Below are positions 10,884 through 53,970 of a DNA stretch of 64,000 bases, piece after piece. Position 1 is the first letter of the stretch; every line of letters starts with the position of its first letter. The stretch lies in the IMG/VR virus record IMGVR_UViG_3300032116_015003, positions 59,689 through 123,688 of that record; one strand, given 5' to 3'. Source of the stretch: a virus. The notes under the pieces were generated by a model. It searched no databases and had not been told where the DNA came from. It worked only from the letters and a program-made list of their open reading frames with translations. The translations under genes were made by a program, and so were the position numbers.

Positions 10884-11180
10884 ATGAATCGATATTCTGT
10901 GGCAAAAATTGATACTCGTTTTGATGGTAAACGTGTATATAAAAGTGTATTATATCCATCGATTTCAGTTGATAGTTCTGATTTTTATATTGTAACCAAT
11001 GAAACTATGTATCTTGACACACTTGCATACAAATACTATAATGACACAAGTTTATGGTGGATTATAGCATTAGCAAATAATATTGGTAAAGGTCGTTTGA
11101 GTGTACCTGCTGGATTACAATTAAGAATACCGGGCAATGTAATAAAAATCATCAACGATTATAATCTCATTAATTCATAA
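10884..11180 (+). CDS. 53: LysM-like baseplate protein (gp53-type)
   Basis: The 98-residue protein has the layout of small baseplate proteins with a LysM-like fold. IVTNETMYLDTLAYKYYND (about 36-54) corresponds to the LysM start, then WWIIALANNIGKG and a closing LSVPAGLQLRIP strand. In T4, gp53 is a baseplate wedge component; in other myophages a short LysM protein joins hub and spike. It starts 2 nt after the previous stop and ends 3 nt before the next start, in an unbroken baseplate operon. The LysM-like pattern is clear, while the gp53 symbol is inferred from family and position. Confidence 0.65.
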   Translation: MNRYSVAKIDTRFDGKRVYKSVLYPSISVDSSDFYIVTNETMYLDTLAYKYYNDTSLWWIIALANNIGKGRLSVPAGLQLRIPGNVIKIINDYNLINS

Positions 11181-13809: not shown

Positions 13810-14199
13810 ATGATTAATATTAATACATATAATTTAATTGGTAATTCAATAGGTGTACAAAATTATGTATATCCAAAATTTTATACATTTGTTGTAAATA
13901 ATTTTGATTATGAAAACGGATTTACATATCGTTATTTTGTTAATAAAATAAATGATAATTTGATAATTGAAGTGTCTGAAAAAAATTACGATGACATTCA
14001 AAAAAATTTGTTTAATAAAGTTGTAGTGATATGGCATTTAATTGGACCTGAGAGAAATGTGTATGTCAATGGAAAGCTTTATGAACAAGGCATTTACGAA
14101 AAAAATTTCAAAGAAATAAGTATCGCAGCACAAACCATGCCAAGTCTAAAAAATTTTATTACAAACTACACGCAATATAGCAAGCCTAGAAAAGATTGA
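13810..14199 (+). CDS. Hypothetical protein of the baseplate operon
   Basis: The 129-residue protein starts 1 nt after the preceding stop and is the last gene before a sigma70-like promoter. It is Asn/Tyr/Phe-rich with beta-type alternation (YPKFYTFVVNNFDYENGF, then VVVIWHLIGPERNVYVNG) and a basic C-terminus (YTQYSKPRKD). The compact all-beta look and its position suggest a small virion component. No family is recognised. Close packing with a certain structural gene makes it a real gene. Confidence 0.6.
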   Translation: MININTYNLIGNSIGVQNYVYPKFYTFVVNNFDYENGFTYRYFVNKINDNLIIEVSEKNYDDIQKNLFNKVVVIWHLIGPERNVYVNGKLYEQGIYEKNFKEISIAAQTMPSLKNFITNYTQYSKPRKD

Positions 14200-14224
14200 C
14201 ATGTGGCAGTACCTACTGTATTGT
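14196..14224 (+). promoter_or_regulatory. Sigma70-like promoter TTGACA-17-TATTGT, leaderless geometry
   Basis: The consensus -35 TTGACA (14196-14201) and TATTGT (14219-14224) are 17 nt apart. The ATG at 14231 lies 7 nt after the -10 box, where transcription should begin, so the mRNA would have no leader. Confidence 0.6.
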
Positions 14225-14230: not shown

Positions 14231-15586
14231 ATGATCATAGATAGTGAAAAAGAATATCTAAAATTTCTTGATAATTACAATCAACATGATTTAATTGTCA
14301 ATACATTGGGATGTGATGAACGATATCATCCTGTTGTAGACGAATTGTGCGCCGTGTTTATTAAAAGTATTACCGATGGTAGAGATTTTACATTGAGTGT
14401 AAATCATCCAGATGGTGTATGGAATATTGATAAAGTTCGACTGGCAATCGACTTGAATAAATTAAATACAAATATATGGACATTCGATAAGAAGAAAACT
14501 TTACATTTTTTGCCCGTCTTGAAATTGAAAGATATTCAAGTTTACGATTACATGGAAACAGGCGAAATTGTTGATGTAACTCAGTATCAATCAAATGTTT
14601 ATGCATTTTATAAGCATATGTATGGCAAATATAGTGATTTGAATTGCGTTATTCCACTATCAGTACATATTGCTAGTTTCGAAAATTTATCTGATAGCGT
14701 ACTTGCACGTATTCGTGGAGTAAACACCGATCAAATTTTCAATCGTATTAATACTGAAATTGTTGAAAGTTTTCAGTCTATTGAATCAAATGGCTTGAAA
14801 ATTGATGAAGTGTTGTTTCAACAACACTTTGGGCACAAAGAATGTAAAATCAAAAACGGGTTTGCTCACACTGAGTATAATTTGTTTACATCTACGGGTC
14901 GGCCAAGTAACCGATTTGGTAACATCAATTATGCTGCTCTCAAAAAAGACGATGGTTGTCGATCTGCATTTGTTAGTCGTTATGGAAATGACGGATATTT
15001 GTTTATGATTGACTATAGTGCATATCATCCACGTTTGATTGCACAATTGGTACGTTACAATCTTCCTGAAGATGTTTACAATTATTTGGGTCAGTCGTAC
15101 TTCAACAAAGACATATTATCTGATGAAGAATTGAAGGCGGCAAAAACAACTACCTTTCAATTATTGTATGGCAATATTCCAGAAAAATATGTTCACATTC
15201 CATTCTTTGTAAAAATCAAAGACTATATTGAACACAGATGGAATCATTTTACAACACACGGATATGTCGAAACGCCAATATATAAGCGTCGTATCACTCC
15301 AAACAACATCAGTGAACCAAGTCCAAATAAGCTGTTTAACTATATTTTACAGGCAACCGAAACGGAGTACAACACTGCTGTATTACGTGATTTGGTAGTG
15401 CATCTAAAAAATAGACTAACCAAGCCTATTTTGTATACATATGATTCTGTACTTTTTGATGTCAGCAATCAAGATGGTATTGAAATTTTGAGAGAAATTA
15501 AAAATATTATGTCGCCTAATAATAATTTTCCTGTAAAATGTTATAAAGGAAACAATTATAATGAAATGCATATAATAAGTGTATAA
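14231..15586 (+). CDS. Family A DNA polymerase-like protein
   Basis: The 451-residue protein carries the polymerase motifs of family A. In order: the pre-palm IESNGLKIDEVLF (about 184-196), TGRPSNRFGNINY (222-234), motif A MIDYSAYHPRLIA (catalytic D261), motif B AAKTTTFQLLYG (about 303-314), the GYVETPIYKRRI finger/palm segment, and motif C LYTYDSVLFDV with D405. Both metal-binding aspartates are present. The N-terminal 180 residues show no clear DEDD exonuclease motifs. It is much shorter than Pol I or T7 polymerase. The phage also encodes a complete family B replicase at 51439, so this is probably a second, specialised polymerase or a terminal nucleotide-adding enzyme. It has its own early-type promoter inside the late module. 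Confidence 0.75.
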   Translation: MIIDSEKEYLKFLDNYNQHDLIVNTLGCDERYHPVVDELCAVFIKSITDGRDFTLSVNHPDGVWNIDKVRLAIDLNKLNTNIWTFDKKKTLHFLPVLKLKDIQVYDYMETGEIVDVTQYQSNVYAFYKHMYGKYSDLNCVIPLSVHIASFENLSDSVLARIRGVNTDQIFNRINTEIVESFQSIESNGLKIDEVLFQQHFGHKECKIKNGFAHTEYNLFTSTGRPSNRFGNINYAALKKDDGCRSAFVSRYGNDGYLFMIDYSAYHPRLIAQLVRYNLPEDVYNYLGQSYFNKDILSDEELKAAKTTTFQLLYGNIPEKYVHIPFFVKIKDYIEHRWNHFTTHGYVETPIYKRRITPNNISEPSPNKLFNYILQATETEYNTAVLRDLVVHLKNRLTKPILYTYDSVLFDVSNQDGIEILREIKNIMSPNNNFPVKCYKGNNYNEMHIISV

Positions 15587-15616: not shown

Positions 15617-16291
15617 ATGAAAGAAATCTATAATAAAGTTTTGGAAGCGGTCGCAATTGATCCCCGTTTAGACACAGGTATTTTTGATGTATTAAACAAT
15701 GATCATTTGTCTGTTTTTCGTGAATATCTAGTAAAAGAAGGTATTTCTGAAGATACCGCTATTGCTGCCAGCAACAAACTGGCAGAAGCGGGTAGATTTC
15801 CAGAGCGACAAGCTTATAACAAAGATGGTTTGTTGGTAACATTTCCTTCACCAGAACACAAACAACGCGCAATTGCTAGAGGAACTCATTTTGAGAGAAA
15901 TCCAAAATCAGCACAAGTAAATATTTTTGGTGCTGAAACACAACCTCAACAACCGGCACAACCAGCACCAGCACAACAAACAGTTGCTCCTACAACTATT
16001 GCAAAACCTGCTGCACCCACACAAGCACCCGTTAAACAGTCAGTTGCTACAACGCAATCTGCGGATGTTACTCCTGTAAATGCCGATAATCGCACACCAG
16101 AAGAAAGAGCGGCAGACGCAAATGCGGTGGAAAAAATGTTAAAGACTGAAGGAAAGTCATATACTTTGTCCGAAGCAATTGCATTTGGATTCTACTCAAA
16201 GAACAATATATGGTATACATCGGATGGTGAAAAAGTTGGTCGCTTGTGGTATGTGGCAGATCGCAAACAACAAATTATATTGCCATGTTAA
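15617..16291 (+). CDS. Two-domain hypothetical protein with Pro/Ala/Gln linker
   Basis: The 224-residue protein has an N-terminal helical domain of about 100 residues (LSVFREYLVKEGISEDTA, then GRFPERQAYNKDGLLVTFPS). A low-complexity linker of Pro, Ala, Gln and Thr spans about 115-160, and a short C-terminal domain (SEAIAFGFYSKNNIWYTSDG) follows. The linker joins two folded parts, as in virion or multi-protein adaptor proteins. The start MKEIYNKVLEAVAID has the M-K-x-x-Y-type pattern of T4 capsid-targeting leaders, but this could be chance. It overlaps the next gene by 7 nt. No family is recognised. Confidence 0.65.
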   Translation: MKEIYNKVLEAVAIDPRLDTGIFDVLNNDHLSVFREYLVKEGISEDTAIAASNKLAEAGRFPERQAYNKDGLLVTFPSPEHKQRAIARGTHFERNPKSAQVNIFGAETQPQQPAQPAPAQQTVAPTTIAKPAAPTQAPVKQSVATTQSADVTPVNADNRTPEERAADANAVEKMLKTEGKSYTLSEAIAFGFYSKNNIWYTSDGEKVGRLWYVADRKQQIILPC

Positions 16292-16686
16292 CGAGAGAAA
16301 AACAACTTTTATGCACATTTACGAATAATGGAGATTATTCGTTATTACTCTCTAAAATTTCAAATTTTTATACAATTTTAGAACATAAACTTTTTATTTT
16401 TGCAAATGTAACAAATTTGAAAGAATATTATCTTACATACAATGTTGACTGTAGAAATACAACGGTCGGCAAATTTCCAAACACCATTAGTATACATCGC
16501 AAGAAAATGTATAATACATTGTATACTTTAAATGGAATGAATAGACTCATTACAGACGAAAACAACGGAGTATTTGATAAAACATATCAACTCAATTGGG
16601 AATTATACAGAAACTCATTGATTTTGACTACGGATATCGGCGTCAAAGTGGTTGGTCTCAAGTTGGTAGACATTGTTACGATGTGA
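16285..16686 (+). CDS. Hypothetical protein upstream of the gp32 gene
   Basis: The 133-residue protein begins MLTREKQLLCTFTNNGDYS at the ATG that overlaps the previous stop; the longer frame from 16246 would overlap that gene by 46 nt and is less likely. The C-terminal half contains NTISIHRKKMYNTLYTLNGM, then LNWELYRNSLILTTD, a well-formed mixed alpha/beta segment. It sits where T4 has genes 59, 33 and dsbA, just before gene 32. It shows no clear match to those proteins, so a replication or late-transcription role is only a positional guess. Confidence 0.6.
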   Translation: MLTREKQLLCTFTNNGDYSLLLSKISNFYTILEHKLFIFANVTNLKEYYLTYNVDCRNTTVGKFPNTISIHRKKMYNTLYTLNGMNRLITDENNGVFDKTYQLNWELYRNSLILTTDIGVKVVGLKLVDIVTM

Positions 16687-16726: not shown

Positions 16727-16754
16727 TTGTGGTTTTTGAAAATCACTCTATACT
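16727..16754 (+). promoter_or_regulatory. Sigma70-like promoter TTGTGG-16-TATACT for gp32
   Basis: TTGTGG (16727-16732) and TATACT (16749-16754) have 16 nt spacing. The expected transcript start, about 16761, is where the leader stem-loop begins. Confidence 0.5.
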
Positions 16755-16759
16755 TATAC

Positions 16760-16810
16760 GTGTATTAAATGATGCACTGTCTCTAGTGAGACGATTATTA
16801 TCTAATACAC
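16760..16810 (+). promoter_or_regulatory. Structured 5' leader of the gp32 gene, possible autoregulatory element
   Basis: GTGTATTA (16760-16767) pairs perfectly with TAATACAC (16803-16810). Inside, GTCTC (16779-16783) pairs with GAGAC (16788-16792), and CACT/AGTG offers a competing pair. The 26 nt from the stem to the ATG are almost only A and T. In T4, gp32 binds an upstream folded element and then coats an unstructured AU-rich start region to repress its own translation. This leader has the same layout. Confidence 0.45.
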
Positions 16811-16836
16811 ACTTAACAATTAATAAATTAAAAATT

Positions 16837-17664
16837 ATGGCATTACCATCAAATAAAATTAAGAGTATTCTTAACTCTATTCAAAACGTTAACAACAAAA
16901 CTTCTTCTGTTTGGAAGCCTGAACCCGGAATCCACAACATTCGTATTGTTCCTTACAAGTTCAACCCTGATCAATTCAGCTTTATTGAGTTGAAGTTCCA
17001 TTATGGCTTGAAGGTCAAGGATGCAACCGGTAAGATTGTAGAACGTACTTTCTTGTCTCCAGACTCCTTTAATCGTCCCGATCCTATTGTCGAATTTGCA
17101 AATAGATTGCAAAAGACTGGTGATAAGGAAGATTGGAAGCGTGGTCGCAATTTGCTTCCAAAGCAACGTACCTATGCACCTATTTTGGTTCGTGGTAAAG
17201 AAAATGAAGGAATCAAGTTTTGGGGATTCGGCAAGACTGTGTATGAAACAATCTTGAAGGCATGTGACGAAGAAGTATTCGGTGATATTAGTGATCCAAC
17301 AACTGGACATGATATTATTGTTGAATACAAGGAGGCTGGACCTAGTGCTGGTGGAAAGAATTTTCCAACAACAACAATTACTGTGAAGGGTAAGGCAACT
17401 CCTGCAATCGACGAGCCGCGTAAGCACATCTTGGACTTCCAGAAGAATATTTTGGAATTGTTTCCAGAACCTACTTACGACCAGTTGTATAACATCATGA
17501 CTGAAATGTTGTCTGCTGGTACTACGGAAGAATCTACGGATGATACCGTAGTAGAACCAACTGATGATGCTATTGCAGCAAATACTTCTCCAACTGCTGC
17601 ATCGGCACAAAGTAACACTCCAAGTGTAAACGATCAATTCGATAAGTTATTTGGAAAGAAATAA
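16837..17664 (+). CDS. 32: Single-stranded DNA-binding protein (T4 gp32-like)
   Basis: The 275-residue protein is a gp32-type SSB. It coats ssDNA at the fork and works with UvsX and gp41. The basic N-terminal piece is followed by an OB-fold core: WKPEPGIHNIRIVPYKF (about 27-43), LKFHYGL, WKRGRNLLPKQRTYAPILV and GIKFWGFGKTVYETIL. The C-terminus is the expected acidic, Asp/Thr-rich tail (from about 230) ending DQFDKLFGKK. The zinc ribbon of T4 gp32 is not seen: only one Cys occurs in the core. The ATG at 16837 gives the usual start MALPSNKIKSIL; the longer frame would begin inside the promoter. A strong terminator follows. Confidence 0.92.
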   Translation: MALPSNKIKSILNSIQNVNNKTSSVWKPEPGIHNIRIVPYKFNPDQFSFIELKFHYGLKVKDATGKIVERTFLSPDSFNRPDPIVEFANRLQKTGDKEDWKRGRNLLPKQRTYAPILVRGKENEGIKFWGFGKTVYETILKACDEEVFGDISDPTTGHDIIVEYKEAGPSAGGKNFPTTTITVKGKATPAIDEPRKHILDFQKNILELFPEPTYDQLYNIMTEMLSAGTTEESTDDTVVEPTDDAIAANTSPTAASAQSNTPSVNDQFDKLFGKK

Positions 17665-17681
17665 ATTAAATTGATAAACAT

Positions 17682-17715
17682 AGGATGATGACATATAATG
17701 TCATCATCCTTTTTT
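17682..17715 (+). terminator. Intrinsic terminator after gp32 gene
   Basis: AGGATGATGACAT and its complement enclose ATA and are followed by TTTTT. It lies 17 nt after the stop. Confidence 0.9.
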
Positions 17716-17758: not shown

Positions 17759-18973
17759 ATGGCAAAAACAAGTAAAAACACAAACGAATCTGAAGATTCA
17801 AAGAAGAAAAGCACAAAATCTGTTAGTAAGAACGATTCTCTATTAGCAAATTTAGCAGCGGAATTAAATAAAAATAACAAAGAAGGTGGCAAAATTGCAT
17901 ACTTTCTTGATGAGCAAGATGATCCATCTACAATCAGTGATTGGATTAGCACCGGTTCAAGTTTATTGGATCTTGCAATTAGTAATCGACCAAATGGTGG
18001 ATTGCCAGTTGGACGAATGGTCGAATTTAACGGCTTAGAAGGAACCGGAAAAAGTTTGGTGAGCGCACACATTGTAGCGAATACACAAAAGAAAGGCGGC
18101 AAAGCAATCTTTATTGACACAGAAAATGCTGCCGCACCTGACTTTTGGAAGAGCTTGGGTGTAGATTTGTCAAATCTATTGTATATTCAACGTGAAACAG
18201 TAGAAGATATTTTTACCACAATGGAGCAAGCAATCGCATATATTCGTAAAGATCAACCCGATGCATTGTTAACAATTATTGTTGATAGTGTAGCGGCAGC
18301 ATCTACAAAAGCTGAGATGGAAAGTGATCATGGTAAAGACGGATATGCCACGGGTAAAGCAATTATTATTAGTAAAGCACTTCGTAAAATTACTAGTATG
18401 ATTGGTCGTCAAAAAGTATTGATTGTATTCACAAATCAATTGCGTCAAAATTTAAATGCAAGTCCTTTTGGTGATCAATATACAGTTAGCGGTGGCAAAG
18501 GATTGCCTTACCATTGCAGTGTTCGTGTACGACTAAACAACGCAGGTCAATTAAAGTTACCAGACAAGACTGTTATTGGCAATGAATGTAAAGCTGTGGT
18601 TGTAAAGAATCGTATGGGACCACCACAACGTCATGTATTTTTCAATATTTATTTTGATAGCGGTATTGCTGATTATGCAAGCTGGTTAGAAGTATTGAAA
18701 GAAAAAGCTTATGTTAAACCAGCCGGTAGTGCTGGATTAAAATATGTCGCATTGAACGGCGACGAAGTTGTATTTAAATCTGAAAGTTTCATCAAGCTTT
18801 TGGATGAACGCCCAGAGTTTAAAACCGAAATGTATAATCGTATTTGTGATGCAGTAATCATGCAATATAAAAATGCAAATAGCACTATTATTGATTCATC
18901 CGCAAATGCTGATGAAGATGCGGAAATGATTGCTGACGAATCCGATATTGATCATTCAGAAGAAAACAATTAA
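17759..18973 (+). CDS. uvsX: UvsX/RecA-like recombinase
   Basis: The 404-residue ATPase forms filaments on ssDNA and drives strand exchange, recombination-dependent replication and repair. After a Ser/Lys-rich tail of about 45 residues comes the core: Walker A GLEGTGKS (92-99), IFIDTENAAAPDFW, Walker B TIIVDSVAAAS, and loop regions around MESDHGKDGYATGKA and FTNQLRQNLNASPFGD. The last 25 residues are strongly acidic, as in UvsX. A variant of the TATTTATA motif, CATTTATA (17745-17752), precedes the ATG. It is followed after 4 nt by the exonuclease gene. Confidence 0.92.
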   Translation: MAKTSKNTNESEDSKKKSTKSVSKNDSLLANLAAELNKNNKEGGKIAYFLDEQDDPSTISDWISTGSSLLDLAISNRPNGGLPVGRMVEFNGLEGTGKSLVSAHIVANTQKKGGKAIFIDTENAAAPDFWKSLGVDLSNLLYIQRETVEDIFTTMEQAIAYIRKDQPDALLTIIVDSVAAASTKAEMESDHGKDGYATGKAIIISKALRKITSMIGRQKVLIVFTNQLRQNLNASPFGDQYTVSGGKGLPYHCSVRVRLNNAGQLKLPDKTVIGNECKAVVVKNRMGPPQRHVFFNIYFDSGIADYASWLEVLKEKAYVKPAGSAGLKYVALNGDEVVFKSESFIKLLDERPEFKTEMYNRICDAVIMQYKNANSTIIDSSANADEDAEMIADESDIDHSEENN

Positions 18974-18977
18974 TTAT

Positions 18978-20036
18978 ATGGACCCAATCACATCAGAAGA
19001 TCGTAAAAAATTATTTTCTATGTTTCAAAACATGGAATTAAACACCAAGCCTGTTGAACGTATGTTGAACAGTGAAGTTCTTTTGGTGGATGGGTTGAAT
19101 TGTTTCTTTCGTTCATTTATGGCTGTGCCAAGTCTAAATGACAATGGATTACACGTTGGAGGCATAGCTGGCTTTTTACAAAGTATTGGTTATGCCTCCA
19201 AACTTTTAAATCCAACTCGTATTGTCATTGTTTTTGATGGCAGCGGTGGCAGTATGAAGCGCAGAAAAATATTTCCAGAATATAAGGAGCGCAGAAAAAC
19301 TAATTTAAAGTATAATAGAAGTTATGAGGAATTGACGACCGATGAACAAGAAGATAGAAATATTCAATCACAATTATTGCGACTGATTGGATATCTTGAT
19401 GCATTGCCTGTGACTGTGATGAGTGTTGATCATGTAGAAGCAGATGACACCATTGCATACGCGGCAAATGAATATTTTAAAGATAGCAATAAAGTATATA
19501 TCATGAGCACAGACAAGGATTATTTACAATTGGTCAATGAAAAGATCAATGTATGGAGTCCAACCAAAAAGAAACTTTATGGATGTGCAGAAATTTTATT
19601 GGAGTATGGAATTAGTTGTGAAAACTTTCTAAATTACAGAATACTTAGTGGTGATGAAAGTGACAATATTGATGGAATACAAGGCAGTGGATTAAAAACT
19701 GTATTAAAGTGTTTTCCACAATTTGCAGAGCATACACAAATGTCATTGGAGCAAATATATACACATTGCGAACAGAACAAAAAGAAATATAAACTATATT
19801 CTTCTATTTTAGAAAACAAGAGCATTGTTGAAAGAAACTATGCACTGATGCAATTGAAAGATACACAATTGCAATCATTTACACAATTACGTGTTAATGA
19901 GATACTTAATAAACCTATTGGAATATTAAATAGAATGCGTTTTAGCAAATTGATTGCAGAAGATAGAATGTGGAACAATATAAAAAATCATCATACTTGG
20001 TTATCGGATACATTCGGTCGATTGATCGTCTCCTAA
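18978..20036 (+). CDS. rnh: 5'-3' exonuclease, RNase H/FEN family (T4 rnh-like)
   Basis: The 352-residue protein is a FEN-family nuclease that would remove RNA primers and flaps on the lagging strand. Its acidic motifs are all visible: LLVDGLNCFFRSF (about 33-45), VFDGSGGSMKRRK with the following PEYKERRK, HVEADDTIAYAA, STDKDYLQLV and the helix-hairpin region LSGDESDNIDGIQGSG. I chose the ATG at 18978, 4 nt after the uvsX stop; the longer frame would start inside uvsX. No terminator follows, and the region behind it contains a promoter for the helicase gene. Confidence 0.88.
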   Translation: MDPITSEDRKKLFSMFQNMELNTKPVERMLNSEVLLVDGLNCFFRSFMAVPSLNDNGLHVGGIAGFLQSIGYASKLLNPTRIVIVFDGSGGSMKRRKIFPEYKERRKTNLKYNRSYEELTTDEQEDRNIQSQLLRLIGYLDALPVTVMSVDHVEADDTIAYAANEYFKDSNKVYIMSTDKDYLQLVNEKINVWSPTKKKLYGCAEILLEYGISCENFLNYRILSGDESDNIDGIQGSGLKTVLKCFPQFAEHTQMSLEQIYTHCEQNKKKYKLYSSILENKSIVERNYALMQLKDTQLQSFTQLRVNEILNKPIGILNRMRFSKLIAEDRMWNNIKNHHTWLSDTFGRLIVS

Positions 20037-20128: not shown

Positions 20129-21517
20129 ATGCAAGTAATCGATAACCTAAAAAAGTTCGGACCTGAATTTCAACTTAAGTGCATCAGCGGCTTAATTAGT
20201 GATAAACCATTCATGGAGCGTATCAACGACATTGTTGATCCTCTTAGTTTTGAAAGTGATGCCAATCAGTGGATTGTTAAGACTGCCCTCAAATATTTTT
20301 TGAAGTTCAAGGAACTGCCTACATTGACTGCGTTTCAAGTTGAACTTGATGCGGTTGAACAGGAAGAATTAAAGAATCAAGTTGTAACACAGTTGCGGTT
20401 GGTTTTCAACAAAATCACTGATAGTGATTTGATGTATGTCAAAGAGCAATTTTTAGAGTTCTGTCGAAATCAGACTTTGAAGAATGCAATCATGGAAAGT
20501 GTTGATCATTTGCAGCGCGGTCATTACGAAAAGATTAAAAGCGTTGTTGATCATGCCATGAAAGCTGGTATGGAGCGCAATATCGGTCATGATTATATGA
20601 CAGATGTTGACAAGCGAATGAGTGTGATGTCTCGAAATACTATTTCTACCAAATGGCAAGTTGTGGATCAAATCATGGATGGTGGTCTAGCTGCTGGTGA
20701 AATGGGTATTGTAACCGCATGCGCTGGATCTGGTAAGAGTTGGGTCTTGGCTAAACTTGGTGCCGAGGCTATGAGACAGGGTAAAAATGTTTTGCATTTT
20801 ACTCTTGAATTGAATGAAAATTATGTTGGTTTGCGTTATGACGCGTGTTTCACCGGTATTGATTTTCAAAACATTCGCAACAATATCGGTATTGTAAAGG
20901 ATCGTATTGCCAATGTTCCCGGCAAATTGATCATTAAGTATTTTCCAATTAAAACTGTTAGTGCTCACAATTTGAAAGCACATGCAGAGAGATTGGCAAT
21001 GTTGGGTACAAAGATTGATATGATGGTAGTCGATTATGCAGATATTCTACGTCCATTTCAATCTGATCGTAATGCAAACAGCTATAGCGAAGCAGGTGGT
21101 ATTTATGAAGAACTACGTGCTGTTGCGGGAGAATTGCAAATTCCTATTTGGACTGCTTCACAAAGCAATCGTGCCGGTATGGAAGAAGACGTATTAACCG
21201 CAATGAATATTAGCGATAGCTATCGTAAAATCATGACGGCAGATTTCGTATTATCTGTAAGTCGCAAGACTCAGGATAAGCAAGCCAATACTGCTCGTTT
21301 TCATATCATTAAAAATCGTTTCGGTCCAGATGGATTGACTTTTCCTGCTCGTATGAACGCTGGTTGTGGAGATATTCAATTGTTTGACGAAGGTAGCCGC
21401 GAAGGTGCTGCATTGATTAATGAAATGAATCAAAGCGAAAATATTGTGAAGAAAATGATGAAAAGTAAGTGGGACGAACACATGGGTCGCAATCGTGAAG
21501 ACGACGGAGACAACTAA
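20129..21517 (+). CDS. 41: Replicative DNA helicase (T4 gp41/DnaB-like)
   Basis: The 462-residue protein is a hexameric 5'-3' helicase that unwinds the fork on the lagging strand. An all-helical N-terminal domain of about 170 residues precedes a RecA-fold C-terminal domain. Walker A is ACAGSGKS (197-204), LHFTLELNENYVGLRYD follows in the position of the H1a region, Walker B is MMVVDYADIL, and WTASQSNRAGMEED and LSVSRKTQDKQA carry the later DnaB motifs. The acidic C-terminus is RNREDDGDN. The primase (gp61) is not in this window. A long hairpin terminator follows. Confidence 0.92.
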   Translation: MQVIDNLKKFGPEFQLKCISGLISDKPFMERINDIVDPLSFESDANQWIVKTALKYFLKFKELPTLTAFQVELDAVEQEELKNQVVTQLRLVFNKITDSDLMYVKEQFLEFCRNQTLKNAIMESVDHLQRGHYEKIKSVVDHAMKAGMERNIGHDYMTDVDKRMSVMSRNTISTKWQVVDQIMDGGLAAGEMGIVTACAGSGKSWVLAKLGAEAMRQGKNVLHFTLELNENYVGLRYDACFTGIDFQNIRNNIGIVKDRIANVPGKLIIKYFPIKTVSAHNLKAHAERLAMLGTKIDMMVVDYADILRPFQSDRNANSYSEAGGIYEELRAVAGELQIPIWTASQSNRAGMEEDVLTAMNISDSYRKIMTADFVLSVSRKTQDKQANTARFHIIKNRFGPDGLTFPARMNAGCGDIQLFDEGSREGAALINEMNQSENIVKKMMKSKWDEHMGRNREDDGDN

Positions 21518-21647: not shown

Positions 21648-23636
21648 ATGAGTGATACAAAACTAATCATTACAGATGATTTTGCCAATCAAGCAAAATA
21701 CAAAAAACAACCAAATTGGGGATTTAACGGACTCGGCTATATCGTTTATAAAAGAACGTATGCGCGAGTGAAGGAAAATGGAGAAACAGAAGAATGGAAT
21801 GAAACCGTTCAGCGTTGTATTAACGGTGCTCAGAAAATTGGAGCACAATATACTCAAGCAGAAGCAGAGCGTTTATTTGATTATGTTTATAATCTTAAGT
21901 GCAATTTTGCTGGCCGAATGCTTTGGCAGCTTGGAACAAGCACAGTAGATAGATTTGGAGCAAACAGCTTATTGAATTGTTGGTTTGCAAGCATGAATGA
22001 ACCAAAAGCATTTTTGTTTCTTTTTGAGAATCTTATGCTTGGCGGTGGCGTAGGTTATAGTATTCGCCGTGAAGATGTTCATGAACTTCCAAAGATCAAG
22101 AAAGATGTAGTTATTACACATCAAGCAACCAAGGATGCAGATTTTATTGTTCCTGACAGTCGTGAAGGCTGGGTAAAATTATTGGAACATGTATTGAATG
22201 CATTTTATGTAACCGGTAAGTCGTTTACATATAGTACTATTTTGATACGTGGTGCTGGTGAAAAAATCAACGGATTTGGTGGCAAAGCAAGCGGACCACA
22301 AATTCTTGTTGATGGTATGGCAAAAATAGTCAGTATTTTCCATAGTCGAGAAGGCAAGAAATTGCGTAGTATTGACGTATTGGATGTATGCAATATTATT
22401 GGTAGTATTGTTGTAGCTGGCAATGTTCGTCGTAGTGCAGAAATTGCACTTGGTGATCCAGATGATATTCTTTATCTACGTGCCAAAAATTGGAGTGCAG
22501 GTAATGTGCCAAATTGGCGAGCAATGAGTAACAATACATTGTATGTAGATGATTATAGTCATTTGCTTGCTGAATTCTGGACCAATGGTTATGAAATTAA
22601 CAAAGACACTGGATTTGCCAACGGCGAACCATACGGTTTCTTTAATCTTCCTTTGTCACAAAAGTATGGACGTACCAAAGATGGATTGATGAAGGACAGT
22701 AATTTGTATCCTACCGACAGTGACAATGTAGTTGGAACCAATCCATGTGGTGAAATTAGTTTGAGTAATTATGAATGTTGTAATTTGTGCGAGTTATATT
22801 TGAACAATATTACAAGCAAGGAAGAGTTAATTGATTGTGCAAAATTGCTCTATAAAACTCAGAAAGCAATTGCGGCATTACCATTCTTGCACGAAGAAAC
22901 TAATAAGATCGTGCATAAAAATATGCGATTGGGTCTTGGTGTAACTGGCGTATGTCAATCATTAAATAAAATTGATTGGTTGGATGATTGCTATGTCGCT
23001 CTTCGTAAATTTGACAAACAATGGAGCAAAGAGCGTGGATGGTCAGAAAGTGTAAAGTTGACCACTGTCAAGCCAAGTGGAACACTCAGTTTGCTTGGGG
23101 GCGCAACTCCCGGTGTTCATCCTGCATATAGTAAATATTATCTACGCACTGTGCGAATGAGTAGTAGCGATAAGTTGGTACAAATTTGTCGTGATCTTGG
23201 TTATCATACAGAATTCTTGTTGAATTTTGATGGAACGGAAAATCGGGATACTATTGTCGTTTATTTTCCATGCGAAACTCCAGAATCTGCAATTCTTGCA
23301 GACAATATGGATGTTATTAAACAACTTGAAATGGTTAAAAAGTTGCAATCTGTATGGAGTGATAATGCTGTCAGTGTAACAGCATATTATAGCCCGGAAG
23401 AATTGGATGCTCTCAAAGACTGGTTGAAAGATAATTATAAGAATCATTTGAAGAGTGTGAGCTTCTTGTTGCGTCAAAAGCATGGATTCAAACAAGCTCC
23501 TTATCAAGAAATTGACAAGGAAACCTATGAAAAGTATAAATCAAAGGTGAAGCCTTTGAGTACCATTACCAACATTATTAGTGGTGATGTATTGCAAGGT
23601 ATCGAATGTGAAGGTGGCGCATGTCCAATTCGTTAA
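21648..23636 (+). CDS. Adenosylcobalamin-dependent (class II) ribonucleotide reductase
   Basis: The 662-residue single-chain enzyme would reduce ribonucleotides to deoxyribonucleotides with a cobalamin cofactor and without oxygen. Key parts: LLNCWFASMNEP with the first active-site Cys (near 108), the Gly-rich LMLGGGVGYSIRRED, the thiyl-radical loop GTNPCGEISLSNYECCN (around 364-380), VKPSGTLSLLGGATPGVHP, and the C-terminal redox pair in CEGGACPIR. Size and layout match the monomeric Lactobacillus-type triphosphate reductase, not the class I NrdAB of T4. It stands alone between two terminators. The use of B12 suggests a host able to make or import cobalamin. Confidence 0.9.
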   Translation: MSDTKLIITDDFANQAKYKKQPNWGFNGLGYIVYKRTYARVKENGETEEWNETVQRCINGAQKIGAQYTQAEAERLFDYVYNLKCNFAGRMLWQLGTSTVDRFGANSLLNCWFASMNEPKAFLFLFENLMLGGGVGYSIRREDVHELPKIKKDVVITHQATKDADFIVPDSREGWVKLLEHVLNAFYVTGKSFTYSTILIRGAGEKINGFGGKASGPQILVDGMAKIVSIFHSREGKKLRSIDVLDVCNIIGSIVVAGNVRRSAEIALGDPDDILYLRAKNWSAGNVPNWRAMSNNTLYVDDYSHLLAEFWTNGYEINKDTGFANGEPYGFFNLPLSQKYGRTKDGLMKDSNLYPTDSDNVVGTNPCGEISLSNYECCNLCELYLNNITSKEELIDCAKLLYKTQKAIAALPFLHEETNKIVHKNMRLGLGVTGVCQSLNKIDWLDDCYVALRKFDKQWSKERGWSESVKLTTVKPSGTLSLLGGATPGVHPAYSKYYLRTVRMSSSDKLVQICRDLGYHTEFLLNFDGTENRDTIVVYFPCETPESAILADNMDVIKQLEMVKKLQSVWSDNAVSVTAYYSPEELDALKDWLKDNYKNHLKSVSFLLRQKHGFKQAPYQEIDKETYEKYKSKVKPLSTITNIISGDVLQGIECEGGACPIR

Positions 23637-25866: not shown

Positions 25867-25891
25867 CGTTTCTATAAAAGCGACCTATGGT
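25863..25891 (+). promoter_or_regulatory. Sigma70-like promoter TTGACG-17-TATGGT
   Basis: TTGACG (25863-25868), 17 nt, TATGGT (25886-25891). The expected start is about 25898, leaving a leader of about 67 nt for the UV endonuclease gene. Confidence 0.5.
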
Positions 25892-25894
25892 ATG

Positions 25895-25970
25895 GGTCAT
25901 GAAACGATACGGACTTTGCTGCATCAGCCTTACCCTACAGGATCAAGGATTCAAATCCTCCACCATGACC
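25895..25970 (+). promoter_or_regulatory. Leader RNA pairing that covers the start codon
   Basis: GGTCATG (25895-25901) is perfectly complementary to CATGACC (25964-25970), which contains the ATG at 25965. Between them lie AGGAT/ATCCT (25946-25959) and GCTG/CAGC hairpins. The total span is close to tRNA size, but no D or anticodon arm can be drawn. If transcription starts at or before 25895, this folding would hide the start codon. Confidence 0.35.
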
Positions 25971-26825
25971 AAAACTCGCTTTTTGCAACTAAACCGCAAA
26001 CAAGCAGAAAAAATCGTGGCAGAACGTACTCTCAACAATGTTATGGTTGCACGTAAAACCATTGAGTTTTGTGCTTCAAAAAACTGGAATTATCGCATCA
26101 GTAGTGGAATGATGCCACTGGAAACCTTGCCAGATGTAAATCTGTTGATTGAAAATACACATAATTTCAACGGCATTCAAAACGAATTCAAACTTGCAGC
26201 ATCTGCAATTAAACAACATAATGTTCGTTGCAGTACACATCCAGATCAATTTGTTGTACCTGCATCTGCCAATCCAGCGGTTGCTGCAAAAAGTGTAATT
26301 GAACTCAATATGCACGGCAAAATGATGGATATGTTTGGTCTTAGCCAAGACTATAATAGTCCAATCAATATTCACATGAATTGTTTCAAAGGCGGCGATC
26401 TTAAAGACACTGCCAAACGATTCATTGACGTATATAATCAATTGCAACACAATGTCAAATCTCGTCTTGTCCTTGAAAACGAAGACAAACCCAACAGTTG
26501 GAATGTAGAGCAATTGTATGAACATATTTACAGTGCCGTAAAAATTCCTATTACTTATGATAATTTGCATCATCGTTGCAACCCCGGAAAACTAACTGCT
26601 ACTGAAGCTTACAAACTTGCATATAGCACTTGGCCTACTGGAACAATTCCATTGTTTCATTTTAGCGACAGTATTCCAAATGGAGATAATCCTAGAGCAC
26701 ATGCAGATTATGCAAATACACTACCGGACGAATATAATAACACAGATGTTCTAGATTTGGAACTGGAATTCAAAGCCAAAGATTTGGCTATCATGGAGTT
26801 TCAGAAGAAATATCCTTGGTATTAA
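25965..26825 (+). CDS. UV damage endonuclease (UVDE/UvsE family)
   Basis: The 286-residue TIM-barrel enzyme would nick DNA 5' to UV photoproducts, starting an alternative excision repair. Family features in order: WNYRISSGMMPLETLPD (about 43-59), CSTHPDQFVVPASANP (84-99) with metal-binding His/Asp, NIHMNCFKGG, LVLENEDKPNSWNVEQL, ITYDNLHHRCNPG and FHFSDSIPNGDNPRAHADY near the end. T4 itself uses the unrelated DenV. I chose the ATG at 25965 (MTKTRFLQLNRKQ) because the longer frame runs through the predicted promoter and structured leader. Confidence 0.9.
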   Translation: MTKTRFLQLNRKQAEKIVAERTLNNVMVARKTIEFCASKNWNYRISSGMMPLETLPDVNLLIENTHNFNGIQNEFKLAASAIKQHNVRCSTHPDQFVVPASANPAVAAKSVIELNMHGKMMDMFGLSQDYNSPINIHMNCFKGGDLKDTAKRFIDVYNQLQHNVKSRLVLENEDKPNSWNVEQLYEHIYSAVKIPITYDNLHHRCNPGKLTATEAYKLAYSTWPTGTIPLFHFSDSIPNGDNPRAHADYANTLPDEYNNTDVLDLELEFKAKDLAIMEFQKKYPWY

Positions 26826-27305: not shown

Positions 27306-27608
27306 ATGGAAATAATTGTTACATTAATTGTTGGTATATTTTTGTTTATTTATATCAAACGCGATATAAAAAAGATCAACGCTCGTATTGACACTGTTGA
27401 AAAATTGATTCCTGATGCAGCGGAATATAAAAAGTATAAAGACGATGTAAAAACTTTATACCAGAACCAAACTCTGCTATTGTCTTTGGTGAACGCTGTA
27501 AGAGTTAGAATCAATAATTTTTATGCCAAAAAGCTCAACGAACCAAGACTCAAATCCGCTGGATTTGATTCAACCAAAGAATTTGGTGAAACCCAAGACG
27601 GTGTTTGA
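27306..27608 (+). CDS. Small membrane-anchored coiled-coil protein
   Basis: The 100-residue protein begins with one membrane segment, MEIIVTLIVGIFLFIYIKR, followed by a charged helix (DIKKINARIDTVEKLI, then KYKDDVKTLYQNQTLL). It probably sits in the host inner membrane with the helix in the cytoplasm. I chose the ATG at 27306; the longer frame would begin inside the terminator hairpin. Its last 86 nt overlap the next gene in another frame. Function is unknown; spanin or holin roles are not supported by neighbours. Confidence 0.6.
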   Translation: MEIIVTLIVGIFLFIYIKRDIKKINARIDTVEKLIPDAAEYKKYKDDVKTLYQNQTLLLSLVNAVRVRINNFYAKKLNEPRLKSAGFDSTKEFGETQDGV

Positions 27609-28041
27609 TCATATCAAACACATCCGTGAATCCAAGGCGCCCGACTATTATCAATCGCTAACTGAAGCTGATCAAAAAACATTTAACAAATATGTTATTT
27701 TGATGGGTTTAAGTATGGATCAAACGGCAATTGAAGGAGTTAGTTATATATCTAAATATTTAGATATATTGCCTCCAAATGCATTTTATAAAGTATGCTG
27801 CGATGTTACTCCAAAATCGACAAGATTTTGCAAATGGATAAAATCATCAAAGCCAAAATATAGTAAAAAGCTCATTGAGATTATCGCATCTTACTATAAA
27901 ATCAGTAAAAGTGATGCATATGATTATTGCACTTCATTCTTTCGTGATGAAACACAATTGACTAATTTAATCAATTTGTGTAGTAGTGTTGGATTTAGCG
28001 AAACTCAAATTGAAAAAATGTTAGAAGGAAAAGATGAATAA
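27523..28041 (+). CDS. 62: Probable clamp loader small subunit (T4 gp62-like)
   Basis: The 172-residue, mostly helical protein resembles the short gp62 proteins of T4-like marine phages. Supporting parts are TVFDHIKHIRESKAPDYYQS (about 26-45), a middle helical region, and RFCKWIKSSKPKYSKKLIE with YYKISKSDAYDYC (about 107-140), where gp62 has a conserved Arg/Trp/Lys helix. In T4, gp62 joins four gp44 subunits to load the gp45 clamp. Here gp44 and gp45 lie far away at 54-55 kb, so the loader genes are split. The start overlaps the previous gene by 86 nt; no later ATG is suitable. Confidence 0.45.
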   Translation: MPKSSTNQDSNPLDLIQPKNLVKPKTVFDHIKHIRESKAPDYYQSLTEADQKTFNKYVILMGLSMDQTAIEGVSYISKYLDILPPNAFYKVCCDVTPKSTRFCKWIKSSKPKYSKKLIEIIASYYKISKSDAYDYCTSFFRDETQLTNLINLCSSVGFSETQIEKMLEGKDE

Positions 28042-30050: not shown

Positions 30051-30851
30051 TTAAAAAGTTATTCCATTTACAAATTTTTCCATTGGTTTATGCGAATTGG
30101 TTTTAGGATGTCTGGTTGCATGAAATCCCCACTTATAATAAAATATTTCTGCTGCATTTCTTTCGCTTTCATTAAATTTATCTCGCTCACTTCCATTTTT
30201 AGTTGAAACACTTCCGAAGTGATAGAAATTAAGTTTACGACTTCTTAAGAATTTTTTATTTATAAGTTCTAGTTTAAGAAAGAAATCCCAATCGCATATA
30301 AATGGACTGTTGAAGATTGTATCAAATCCCCCAACTGTCATGTAATCTTTCTTAGTCATAAAAAACGGGAATATTTCCCCGTCTTGTGTTAACTGATTGG
30401 ATCTATATGATGGTTCTTTTTCGCTAAATTCTTTATATCTAAAATTATCTGGTCCGCCAAAATCTCCAATTCCAAAATTAAATATGCTAGGATTTCGTTC
30501 AATTTGATTAGGCGTTATGATTGTATCATGATGAAAATCTTCAAGTAAAATTTTGTCCCATTCTACCGGAAACACATTGTCGTCGTTAACAATTAATATT
30601 TTCTCGTTTGTTGCATGAAAAACTCCAACGTTTAATGCTTGTTGCATTCCTTGATTTTCTTCAAATTCATAAAATTGTACATTTGTATTGTTGTACTTCT
30701 TTTTTAAGGAAGTATATTGTTCCGCAAATCCATCTAATACAACAATATATTGATTTTTGTTTGTTTCTCCTAATAATCCAGAATCCAAACAAATCTCAAG
30801 ACATTTTGGATTTTTATATGAAGGAATGATGATTGAAATTTGATTGTTCAT
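30051..30851 (-). CDS. Glycosyltransferase family 2
   Basis: The 266-residue protein is a GT2 enzyme with a GT-A fold. It starts with the usual SIIIPSYKNPKCLEICLDS (about 5-23), has the acidic donor-site strand EKILIVNDDNVFPVEW (NDD near residue 95) and the late ICDWDFFLKLELINK segment, where the ED/WD pair serves as base. Such enzymes extend cell-surface or protein-linked glycans. It overlaps its upstream neighbour by 4 nt (ATGA). The donor is unknown. Confidence 0.85.
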   Translation of the reverse strand: MNNQISIIIPSYKNPKCLEICLDSGLLGETNKNQYIVVLDGFAEQYTSLKKKYNNTNVQFYEFEENQGMQQALNVGVFHATNEKILIVNDDNVFPVEWDKILLEDFHHDTIITPNQIERNPSIFNFGIGDFGGPDNFRYKEFSEKEPSYRSNQLTQDGEIFPFFMTKKDYMTVGGFDTIFNSPFICDWDFFLKLELINKKFLRSRKLNFYHFGSVSTKNGSERDKFNESERNAAEIFYYKWGFHATRHPKTNSHKPMEKFVNGITF

Positions 30852-31561
30852 AATTTATTTAATATTTCAAATTCTTTTGACCAATTAACAACAGGTGACA
30901 TATATTCGTTTTCACAATGAGTTGAATAACCGGGTATAGAAGACACCAAATTAGATCCATTTTGCCAAAGATTAATAAATTTATCATGATCTCTTGTATA
31001 TCCCTTTACTAAATCACAGTATTGTGTATGCATATCATAATGTTTTTTAAACGTTGAAAATAACATTGCATATGTGTTTGTAGTTGATGGCGTAGTTCTC
31101 CAATGAGATAATTTAGTTGGATAAATAGAAGACTGTAGAGTGGAATACGCTTCATAAATATATTTATCATTGTGATCATACAATGTAAAATAATCTGCGC
31201 TTAAATTTTCAAATCCATCTATTAAAATATCTACCCAGCCTTGTCGATGAAAATAGTCATCTTCTACAAAGTATATAATATCATTTGCATTATACGGTTG
31301 TGCGATTGTATATTCAAGTAAATTTAAAAAACTTTTTCCGTCGTTTCCGCCTTTTTTTTCTACAATATTACATCGATTTTCATTGTTTAAAAAGTGCTTA
31401 CTTACATCACCATCAAACAAAACCGTTACATCAACTCTATTATCAATGGAGTTTAATAGACAATTAAAAATCTTTTCTTTGTCAAACCAACTCGGTCTAT
31501 TTTTTTTATTCGCACTATTTGCCGAAAAATTACAATGTCTAATTAATAACTTAATATTCAT
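30848..31561 (-). CDS. GT-A-type glycosyltransferase
   Basis: The 237-residue protein shows a GT-A-like order: DVTVLFDGDVSKHFLNNE, a Gly-rich NDGKSFLNLLEYTIAQPY, then the acidic motif DIIYFVEDDYFHRQGW (EDD near residue 98). VEDDY instead of DxD suggests a metal site of the GT2/GT25 kind. It belongs to the minus-strand glycan cluster and couples by ATGA overlap to the GT2 gene downstream. A 56-nt gap separates it from the gene before. Confidence 0.65.
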   Translation of the reverse strand: MNIKLLIRHCNFSANSANKKNRPSWFDKEKIFNCLLNSIDNRVDVTVLFDGDVSKHFLNNENRCNIVEKKGGNDGKSFLNLLEYTIAQPYNANDIIYFVEDDYFHRQGWVDILIDGFENLSADYFTLYDHNDKYIYEAYSTLQSSIYPTKLSHWRTTPSTTNTYAMLFSTFKKHYDMHTQYCDLVKGYTRDHDKFINLWQNGSNLVSSIPGYSTHCENEYMSPVVNWSKEFEILNKL

Positions 31562-31617
31562 AATTATTTATTTTTTTAATAAGAATGCACGTCTTTATCT
31601 AGTTTATTTATTAAAAT

Positions 31618-32325: not shown

Positions 32326-32327
32326 AA

Positions 32328-33323: not shown

Positions 33324-33393
33324 AAATTTTTTAAAATATCAGAATAATTAATATCTTGAATACATAGACATTTTAACTAACGAAACTTTTTTT

Positions 33394-38975: not shown

Positions 38976-38984
38976 AAATTATAA

Positions 38985-51438: not shown

Positions 51439-53970
51439 ATGTATCAAAATATATTCGTAGATAAAAAAACAAACACTGTTCATCTATGGGATGATGAAGG
51501 TGGTTATCAAAATATACCTTTTCAAAACTATGCATTTCGTAAGCGTCCCGGTGGACGTTATCGTAGTATTTATGGTGACGAACTAGAACGAGTCACATTT
51601 TTTAATCCTAGAGATCCATCACTTTTTGGCTCGGATATTCCAATTGAAACCAAAATTTTAATTGACTTGTACGAGTCCAGTGATGATGTATCCAAAGGAC
51701 ATCGTATTGGTTGCATCGATATTGAAACGGACAGCGAAGGTGGGTTTCCAACCGTTGAAAAGGGCGATAAAGAAATCACTGCAATTGCATTGTATGATTA
51801 TGTAGGCGGCAAATATATTGCATTTCTACTTGATAAAGACAATCGGGTAAAAACCAATTCTATTGATGGTATAGAAATTATTTCTAGTGACAACGAATAT
51901 AATCTATTGAGCAAGTTCCTAAACAAATGGAATGAACTCGGATTTACCATTGTTACAGGTTGGAATATTGATGGATTTGATATGCCTTATCTGTATAATC
52001 GTATTACGAATGTAATGGGAAAAGAGCATTCAAAGCGATTGAGTCCCATTGATATTTGTTATATCAACGATTGGAGCAAACGGTTGGTGATAGCGGGTAT
52101 TAGTTGTTTGGATTATCTTGAATTGTTCAAGAAATATTCAGACAAGCGTGAACCTTCGTATGCACTTGATCCAATTGGCCGCAAATTTGTCGGTATTGGT
52201 AAGGTGGAATTTGAAGGAAGTCTTGATCATTTGTATAAGACTGATTTGGAAAAGTATATTCGTTACAATATCAACGACGTAAAAATTGTTGTTGAGATTG
52301 ATAAACTCAAACAATATATTGAATTGGCCCGTAAAATTTGTCACACAGGTCATGTTCCATATGAAAACTTTGCATGGAGCAGTCGATACCTAGAAGGTGC
52401 AATATTGACATATTTGCGCCGTAATGGTGGTCTTATTGCTCCAAATAAACCAATGGAGGGCAAGGAAGAATATGAGCAGCGTTTGGAAGCTAACGAAGAA
52501 GGATTTGAAGGTGCATATGTGAAAGATCCAATTCCGGGTCGGTACGAATATGTATTTGACTTGGACTTGACCAGTATGTATCCAAAAATCATGATTAGTC
52601 TCAATATTAGTCCAGAAACGAAAGTTGGTAAGATTGATAGTTGGGATGTAGAAGCGTATCTTTCCGGCAAACTTGAAAAAGTATTTATTGCGGGCAATCC
52701 ATATACTATGGATGAATTTCATAAATTGTTGACTCAGCAAAACTTGAGTGTTTCGAGCAACGGTTGCTTGTACAAATTGGATAAGAAAGGTGTTATTCCA
52801 TCGATTCTATCCAAGTGGTTTGATGAACGTGTTGAGATGCGTAAATTGGAAAAGAAGTATGCTAAAGAAAACAACAAAGAAATGTATCAATTTTATAATC
52901 AACGTCAGTTGGTACAAAAGATTATGTTGAACAGTGCTTATGGTGTGCTTGGATTGCCAATTTTTAGATTTTACGATAAAGACAATGCAGAAGCTGTTAC
53001 GAAGAGTGGTGTAACCATTATTCAAACGGCAGGTAAAGCAATCAATCAATATTATCAGGATATTCTAAAAGATGACGGTGATTATGTCATCTACACTGAT
53101 ACAGACAGTTGCTTTGCAAGCGCATTGCCTATTATTGAACGAACCATGCCAGAAATTGATGTTAACAACGAAGAGTTAATGATCAAAACAACATTGAAAA
53201 TTTGTTCAGAGGTACAGACGTTTGTTAATAAAATCTTTGATGTAATGGCACAACGAGCCTTTCATTTGAAACATCATGAATTTGAAGCAAAACAAGAAGT
53301 TATTGCCAAGAGTTCATTTTGGCTGGCTAAGAAACGTTATACACAGTTCATTATTAATAAAAATGGTGTTGAATGTGATGAACTAGAAATCAAAGGTATC
53401 GACGTAGTTCGTACAAGTTTTCCAATTCGATTCAGAAAATTTATGAATGACTTTTTGATTGACATTCTTAAAAAGACTGACATGAAGATCATCAATCAGA
53501 AAATTTATGAGTTTGAATTGACATTGAACGACGTGCCGATCATTGAACTTGCAAAAAACACAAGTATCAAGTTTGTAAGTATGGATAAAGGTAAAAATTA
53601 TGATCCTAATAATCGTGTACCTTTTAATTTTATATTGGGTACTCCTGCTCAAGTAAAAGCTGGTCTTGCTTACAATGATTTGCTTGAGTTTTGGAAACTT
53701 GACACTAAATATCCAAAACTGATGCATGGACAAAAAATCAAGTGGGTGTATTTAATTGAGAATGACTATGGTATTGATGCATTGGCTATGAAAGCTGACG
53801 GCACCGATCCTAAAGAAATTCTTGATTTTATTGAGAAATACATTGATCGTAAATTGATGTATCAAAAAGAACTCAAAAGCAAATTAGAAGACTTTTACAA
53901 CGTATTGAAGTGGAATTATCCAGATCAATACAGCATGAACACAATGAATATTATATTTGATTGTGAGTAA
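51439..53970 (+). CDS. 43: DNA polymerase, family B (T4 gp43-like)
   Basis: The 843-residue replicase has both activities. The 3'-5' exonuclease motifs are IGCIDIETDSEGG (Exo I, about 92-104), TGWNIDGFDMPYLYN (Exo II) and YNINDVKIVVEIDKL (Exo III). The polymerase motifs are FDLDLTSMYPKIM (A, near 374), KIMLNSAYGVLGL (B, near 495) and IYTDTDSCF (C, near 550), followed by FWLAKKRYTQFI. It is slightly shorter than T4 gp43 (898). There is no intein. The C-terminus ends at IIFDCE after a hydrophobic strand that may bind the clamp. The clamp and clamp loader genes follow. Confidence 0.95.
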   Translation: MYQNIFVDKKTNTVHLWDDEGGYQNIPFQNYAFRKRPGGRYRSIYGDELERVTFFNPRDPSLFGSDIPIETKILIDLYESSDDVSKGHRIGCIDIETDSEGGFPTVEKGDKEITAIALYDYVGGKYIAFLLDKDNRVKTNSIDGIEIISSDNEYNLLSKFLNKWNELGFTIVTGWNIDGFDMPYLYNRITNVMGKEHSKRLSPIDICYINDWSKRLVIAGISCLDYLELFKKYSDKREPSYALDPIGRKFVGIGKVEFEGSLDHLYKTDLEKYIRYNINDVKIVVEIDKLKQYIELARKICHTGHVPYENFAWSSRYLEGAILTYLRRNGGLIAPNKPMEGKEEYEQRLEANEEGFEGAYVKDPIPGRYEYVFDLDLTSMYPKIMISLNISPETKVGKIDSWDVEAYLSGKLEKVFIAGNPYTMDEFHKLLTQQNLSVSSNGCLYKLDKKGVIPSILSKWFDERVEMRKLEKKYAKENNKEMYQFYNQRQLVQKIMLNSAYGVLGLPIFRFYDKDNAEAVTKSGVTIIQTAGKAINQYYQDILKDDGDYVIYTDTDSCFASALPIIERTMPEIDVNNEELMIKTTLKICSEVQTFVNKIFDVMAQRAFHLKHHEFEAKQEVIAKSSFWLAKKRYTQFIINKNGVECDELEIKGIDVVRTSFPIRFRKFMNDFLIDILKKTDMKIINQKIYEFELTLNDVPIIELAKNTSIKFVSMDKGKNYDPNNRVPFNFILGTPAQVKAGLAYNDLLEFWKLDTKYPKLMHGQKIKWVYLIENDYGIDALAMKADGTDPKEILDFIEKYIDRKLMYQKELKSKLEDFYNVLKWNYPDQYSMNTMNIIFDCE

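What the first reader, a model, noticed from the sequence alone, without database searches (positions are those of the whole stretch)
14231..15586. Second, family A-like DNA polymerase inside the late module
The protein shows all family A motifs with both catalytic Asp (261, 405), but at 451 residues it has no room for a full Pol I domain set and no clear exonuclease motifs. The same window has a complete family B replicase. It also has its own consensus-like promoter with leaderless geometry, so it may be expressed early despite its late-module position. A special role in repair, end filling or DNA modification is possible.
Basis: partly seen in the sequence, partly recalled or inferred. Interest (0 to 1): 0.75.

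Follow-up and report, generated by a model that had tools for sequence, protein, structure and literature searches.

The report
Stripped-down accessory phage DNA polymerase (divPolA1)
A large phage carries, besides its main DNA-copying enzyme, a second and much reduced DNA polymerase of a type first reported in 2024; it heads a conserved set of recombination and replication genes, travels with an uncharacterised small protein, and has an unusual active site that deserves a bench test.

Summary
Window 14231-15586 encodes a 451-residue family A polymerase (Pfam DNA_pol_A, E 2.6e-12) under purifying selection (dN/dS about 0.08); its AlphaFold model (pLDDT 93) matches Klenow best. It is a new member of divPolA1, described by Yutin et al. 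2024 (PMC11348598): intact palm, truncated thumb (26 residues where Klenow has 115), exonuclease-like domain without its motif I acids, beside a separate full-size replicase (PolB here).

'Late module' is only half right: the gene borders the tail genes and heads a conserved cluster, divPolA1-P2-SSB-UvsX-5'-3' nuclease-DnaB (68 of 75 loci).

Three points I did not find in the text of that paper: the steric-gate Glu is His in 145 of 145 readable representatives (and motif C His is Tyr in 146 of 146); the family is far larger than 14 genomes (over 570 IMG/VR stretches); and a roughly 130-residue protein without a PDB fold match (P2) is linked to it in both directions.

Most likely role (inferred): accessory synthesis of short stretches in recombination-linked replication and lagging-strand maturation, with the 5' nuclease in trans. 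Biochemistry is untested.

The parts
14231..15586 (+). divPolA1: accessory family A DNA polymerase, 451 aa (exonuclease-like domain about 1-140, truncated thumb about 143-200, palm and fingers about 206-451)
   Evidence: Pfam and PHROG matches, alignment of 146 representatives, AF2 model and Foldseek
14196..14224 (+). promoter-like site TTGACA-17-TATTGT, start codon at about +1 (leaderless geometry)
   Evidence: Sequence; recurrence in relatives. No transcript data
15617..16291 (+). variable gene between divPolA1 and P2 (224 aa); weak match to a gp2.5-like ssDNA-binding PHROG (E 0.0036)
   Evidence: relatives in 46 ORFs of the loci
16285..16686 (+). P2: conserved protein of unknown function, 133 aa, linked to divPolA1 in both directions
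   Evidence: 180/183 loci; same six of 50,697 phage records; 41/41 from the P2 side; AF2 pLDDT 92.8 without PDB match
16729..17664 (+). gp32-like single-strand DNA binding protein
   Evidence: Pfam gp32 E 5.1e-11, phrog_1192 E 1.5e-13
17759..18973 (+). UvsX/RecA-type recombinase
   Evidence: Pfam RecA E 5e-51, phrog_97 E 2.8e-71
18930..20036 (+). 5'-3' exonuclease (the domain type that forms the N-terminus of Pol I), here a separate gene
   Evidence: Pfam 5_3_exonuc_N E 2.2e-31, phrog_107
20129..21517 (+). DnaB-type replicative helicase
   Evidence: Pfam DnaB_C E 1.1e-19, phrog_19 E 1.9e-74
51439..53970 (+). family B DNA polymerase, the probable replicase
   Evidence: PF00136 and PF03104, phrog_262 E 4.4e-173

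Best explanation
The ORF is a divPolA1: an accessory, non-proofreading family A DNA polymerase with a truncated thumb, encoded in addition to the phage's PolB replicase. SHOWN by sequence or model: palm with both metal-binding aspartates, truncated thumb, exonuclease-like domain without its motif I acids, purifying selection, conserved linkage to P2, SSB, UvsX, 5'-3' nuclease and DnaB, and promoter-like sites recurring at the gene start. INFERRED: it does local, distributive synthesis, that is, short gap filling after primer removal or repair and extension of recombination-primed 3' ends, while the 5'-3' nuclease five genes downstream supplies in trans the activity that the Pol I N-terminus has in cis; in effect a Pol I split over separate genes. 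P2 probably binds the polymerase or its primer-template and may make up for the truncated thumb. PolB does the bulk replication.
For: Family A palm and motifs; Klenow-like model, pLDDT 93.3, Klenow 1kfd TM 0.78; thumb segment 26 residues against 115 in Klenow; exonuclease acids D355, E357 and D501 replaced; dN/dS about 0.08; cluster order divPolA1-P2-SSB-UvsX-nuclease-DnaB in 68/75 loci; a separate full-size replicase in 13/13 IMG/VR records of at least 80 kb, PolB in nine and long PolA in four; divPolA1 stays while the replicase differs between lineages; own promoter-like site.
Against: No activity has been shown for any member. R754 and R841, which help hold the nucleotide and template in Pol I, are not kept, and the steric-gate Glu is His, so a plain gap-filling enzyme need not follow. 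The role is drawn from gene neighbours. PolB plus clamp loader could do the same work, as T4 manages without such a gene (own knowledge).
Confidence: 0.55

Rival explanations
1. Specialised polymerase with altered sugar selectivity: the invariant His at the steric-gate position lets it use rNTPs or modified nucleotides, for example to extend primers or lay ribopatches.
For: E710 is His in 145/145 readable representatives, while eight comparison PolAs, including the second PolA of the same phage immuto, have Glu. E710 is the residue described as blocking ribonucleotides in Pol I (PMC9324360). Y766 is kept.
Against: A His is bulky and may exclude a 2'-OH just as well; no geometry could be checked. 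Mutant data known to me concern Ala, not His. The family may only have rewired the E710-Y766 contact.
Confidence: 0.15
2. Translesion or damage-tolerance polymerase: non-proofreading, open active site, used with UvsX and the UV endonuclease of this phage.
For: No proofreading residues, truncated thumb; UvdE-type endonuclease at 25887-26825; linkage to the recombinase.
Against: Conserved neighbours are general replication and recombination proteins; linkage of UvdE to the family was not tested.
Confidence: 0.15
3. Structural or loading factor: the polymerase fold is kept for binding primer-template or partners and synthesis is marginal.
For: Changes at several substrate-contact residues (R754, R841, H881).
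Against: Both catalytic Asp, the motif B Lys and Tyr, and the TGR-type Arg are near-invariant across 146 representatives, which is hard to explain without catalysis.
Confidence: 0.07
4. RNA polymerase or primase role, as was raised for the other divergent phage PolA (divPolA2).
For: Steric-gate Glu replaced; Yutin et al. raise an RNA polymerase option for divPolA2.
Against: All 50 Foldseek matches shown are Pol I-type, Pol theta or Pol nu DNA polymerases, Klenow first. A DnaG-type or primase-like gene is annotated separately in immuto and in Mel-JY01.
Confidence: 0.05

Closest known systems
divPolA1 (Yutin et al. 2024, Virol J 21:200, PMC11348598; includes Flavobacterium phage immuto gene 1)
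   Same: Full-length homology (31% to immuto gene 1 over 93%, E 1e-55), conserved palm, truncated thumb, inactivated exonuclease domain, extra to a regular replicase, replication genes downstream
   Different: A distinct lineage (about 30% identity to immuto) from a PolB phage. The Asp aligned to Klenow D424 is kept by sequence alignment (D86), whereas the paper reports all three exonuclease Asp replaced in its representatives
divPolA2 of barbaviruses (same paper)
   Same: Extra divergent PolA beside PolB, no working proofreading domain
   Different: divPolA2 is described with an unrelated N-terminal domain and a variable gene neighbourhood; here the N-terminus aligns with the exonuclease domain and the neighbourhood is conserved
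DNA polymerase I / Klenow fragment
   Same: Palm and fingers motifs, overall fold (TM 0.78 by query length)
   Different: No 5'-nuclease domain in cis, thumb truncated, exonuclease acids lost, E710 to His, H881 to Tyr, E883 to Ser, R754 lost

Membership tests
divPolA1 | Homology to a named member | tested here: met
   tblastn to immuto gene 1: 30.8% over residues 23-442, E 1e-55. Gene 1, not gene 71, is taken as the divPolA1 because the paper places the regular polymerases near GroEL/GroES, as gene 71 is
divPolA1 | Palm with main catalytic residues conserved | tested here: met
   D261 and D405; 145/145 and 146/146 in representatives; model matches Klenow
divPolA1 | Truncated thumb | tested here: met
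   26 residues between the G188 and Y216 equivalents against 115 in Klenow
divPolA1 | 3'-5' exonuclease active site lost | tested here: met
   D355 to T25, E357 to G27, D501 to N138 by alignment
divPolA1 | All three exonuclease Asp replaced (as reported for the paper's representatives) | tested here: inconclusive
   D424 aligns with D86 in the window and with Asp in 86 of 146 representatives; alignment in this region is weak
divPolA1 | Present in addition to a regular replicase | tested here: met
   PolB at 51439-53970; 13/13 IMG/VR records of at least 80 kb
divPolA1 | Conserved replication genes downstream | tested here: met
   SSB, UvsX, 5'-3' nuclease, DnaB
divPolA1 | DNA polymerase activity | not testable with these tools
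   Inferred in the paper too; no assay is reported in the text read
divPolA2 | Unrelated N-terminal globular domain and variable gene neighbourhood | tested here: not met
   Neighbourhood conserved; N-terminus aligns with the Klenow exonuclease domain. No divPolA2 sequence was compared directly
Canonical DNA polymerase I | 5'-nuclease domain in cis, full thumb, Glu at the steric gate, His-Asp-Glu motif C | tested here: not met
   None of these is present; the 5'-nuclease is a separate gene at 18930-20036

The most novel reading that the evidence does not exclude
divPolA1 and P2 form a two-subunit phage polymerase in which P2, a protein without a matched fold in the PDB, replaces the missing thumb, and in which the invariant steric-gate histidine gives a sugar selectivity unlike that of other family A DNA polymerases, used for a dedicated step of recombination-dependent replication.
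Probability: 0.12. Interest if true: 0.8.

Novelty: new member of a known kind. Interest (0 to 1): 0.5.

Why it matters
Why large phages keep a second, reduced polymerase beside a complete replicase is open. The data make it testable: the gene is under strong selection, stays while the replicase changes type, is linked to one small partner of unmatched fold, and carries an invariant change at the residue that keeps ribonucleotides out in other Pol I-type enzymes. A non-proofreading enzyme with an altered steric gate could also be of use for making modified nucleic acids.

Tried and rejected
Rejected: truncated or decaying gene (near-invariant motifs, dN/dS about 0.08). Rejected: chance motif match (Pfam, PHROG, fold and full-length homologs agree). 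Rejected: simply part of the tail operon. P2 gave no Pfam, PDB-sequence or PDB-fold match; its only significant viral fold match is an unnamed phage protein, 35% identical. The published representative genomes LR796625 and MK892584 are not in the held collection. Genome-collection scan: five MAG contigs (three of Flavobacteria, one titled Rickettsiaceae, one unassigned bacterium), not followed up, so no host claim is made. A single promoter-like match is not significant alone.

Full report
OBSERVATION. The ORF at 14231-15586 is real and complete. Pfam DNA_pol_A matches residues 206-434 (E 2.6e-12, above the gathering score) and PHROG 17 DNA polymerase matches with E 1.5e-16. The window is 64 kb of a 123,688-base IMG/VR virus record. 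A complete PolB lies at 51439-53970, an AAA clamp-loader candidate at 54814-55740 and a clamp-loader small subunit at 27523-28041.

ANATOMY. 146 full-length representatives (clustered at 90% identity, mostly from viral contigs) were aligned with Klenow, T7 gp5 and the long PolA of phage immuto. Near-invariant and shared with Pol I: D705 = D261, D882 = D405, K758 = K305, F762 = F309, Y766 = Y313, R668 = R224, N845 = N370, Q849 = Q374. Changed: E710 = His266 (145/145, one gap), H881 = Tyr404 (146/146), E883 = Ser or Ala (101 and 45), Q677 = Asn233 (146/146), R754 mostly Tyr (106/146; Leu in the window). Eight comparison PolAs all keep Glu at 710 and His at 881, whereas Ser at 883 also occurs in two of them and in the active Tt72 polymerase (PMC9324360). 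That paper also states that E710 sterically blocks ribonucleotides in Pol I. Exonuclease residues D355, E357 and D501 are replaced (T25, G27, N138 in the window); D424 aligns with D86. The segment that carries the thumb is 26 residues long against 115 in Klenow.

STRUCTURE. An AlphaFold2 model from 38 relatives has mean pLDDT 93.3 and pTM 0.90. Best PDB matches are Klenow entries (1kfd, TM 0.78 by query length, E 2.7e-19). Coordinates could not be inspected, so side-chain geometry at His266 was not checked.

FAMILY. The finding is a member of divPolA1 (Yutin et al. 2024, PMC11348598), which that paper found in 14 phages of 155-190 kb and described from models as thumb-truncated, exonuclease-inactivated and followed by conserved replication genes. 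A text search found only that paper and its preprint. Purifying selection is strong (dN/dS 0.076-0.085 in the four closest pairs).

ACCESSORY STATUS. Twenty records reached through the loci were searched for PolA, PolB and PolC. All 13 IMG/VR records of at least 80 kb carry another full-size polymerase: PolB in nine, long PolA in four. LR756508 (484 kb) has PolB pieces and a PolC. Three fragments of 74-79 kb had none, which says little because they are incomplete. In a tree of 19 divPolA1s the seven from long-PolA genomes form one group (support 100/100) nested among PolB genomes: the replicase may have changed once while divPolA1 stayed. The root is a midpoint root and two branches are long.

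NEIGHBOURHOOD. Window gene order matches immuto on both sides: tail genes upstream, then divPolA1, P2, SSB, 5'-3' nuclease, DnaB; the recombinases of the two phages do not match at that threshold but sit in the same place. Over 236 distinct loci, counted where there is room: P2 180/183, SSB 136/140, UvsX 110/112, nuclease 95/98, DnaB 69/75, and the full order in 68/75.

P2. This roughly 130-residue protein (window 16285-16686) has conserved motifs LLCTF, TYNV, HRKK and NTLYTINALN and an invariant Trp. In 50,697 phage records it is found in exactly the six records that carry a near full-length divPolA1 by tblastn. Searching from P2, 41 of 41 loci with at least 5 kb upstream have divPolA1 there; these are the hits nearest to the window's P2. 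Its model has pLDDT 92.8 and no PDB match (best E 0.35), no Pfam family and no PDB sequence relative. I cannot say whether the published neighbourhood figure shows this gene, as figures are not held.

PROMOTER. The site TTGACA-17-TATTGT with ATG at about +1 has counterparts with the same or nearly the same spacing in relatives of 35-50% identity, for example L021, L044, L047 and L048. Across 141 representatives a TTG(A/G)...TAnnnT-type site lies in the 70 bases before the gene in 75, against 10.5 by shuffling and 6/129 before P2; it is also frequent before SSB (38/115). In several loci of the immuto group a terminator-like hairpin precedes it. So divPolA1 and SSB probably each start a transcription unit. 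The patterns were chosen after looking at these sequences, so the excess is somewhat inflated. Timing is unknown.

MECHANISM. Best reading: local, non-proofreading synthesis in recombination-linked replication and lagging-strand maturation, with the nuclease in trans and P2 as probable partner. Identity as divPolA1 is close to certain (about 0.97); the role is inference (about 0.55), since co-occurrence and gene order do not show an activity. Rivals are altered sugar selectivity, lesion bypass, a mainly structural role, and an RNA polymerase or primase role.

VERDICT. A correct observation of a real, known but biochemically uncharacterised protein family, with three testable additions: the steric-gate histidine, the P2 linkage, and the transcription-unit start.

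Noticed in passing
window 17671-17710: Between SSB and UvsX a 13-bp perfect hairpin followed by a T run has TATAAT at its centre, which is also the second hexamer of a TTGATA-17-TATAAT promoter-like site: terminator-like and promoter-like elements on the same bases.
   Followed up: no
window 16285-16686: P2, a conserved phage protein with a confident model and no PDB or Pfam match, found only together with divPolA1 in the collections searched.
   Followed up: partly
window 11014-11042: A perfect 12/12 TTGACA-17-TATAAT promoter-like match inside the tail genes (ORF 10884-11180).
   Followed up: no
window 21648-23636 and 25887-26825: A ribonucleotide reductase with a B12-dependent-type insertion domain match and a UvdE-type UV endonuclease follow the replication cluster.
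   Followed up: no
window 30051-49052 (- strand): Long minus-strand block with nucleotide-sugar epimerase, glycosyltransferase and phosphoheptose isomerase-like matches, as for surface sugar synthesis.
   Followed up: no
P0001 residues H33, H59, K88, D101: The dead exonuclease-like domain keeps its own near-invariant polar residues (94-99%), of which H33 and K88 have no counterpart in Klenow; they may mark a new binding site.
   Followed up: no
LR756508.1 260623-266900: PolB matches of this 484 kb phage lie in two separate open frames (1022 and 625 aa), so the gene looks split or interrupted.
   Followed up: no
L304 (contig of a MAG titled Rickettsiaceae): A divPolA1 on a contig binned to Rickettsiaceae, others on Flavobacteria MAG contigs; possible host hints or misbinned phage contigs.
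   Followed up: no
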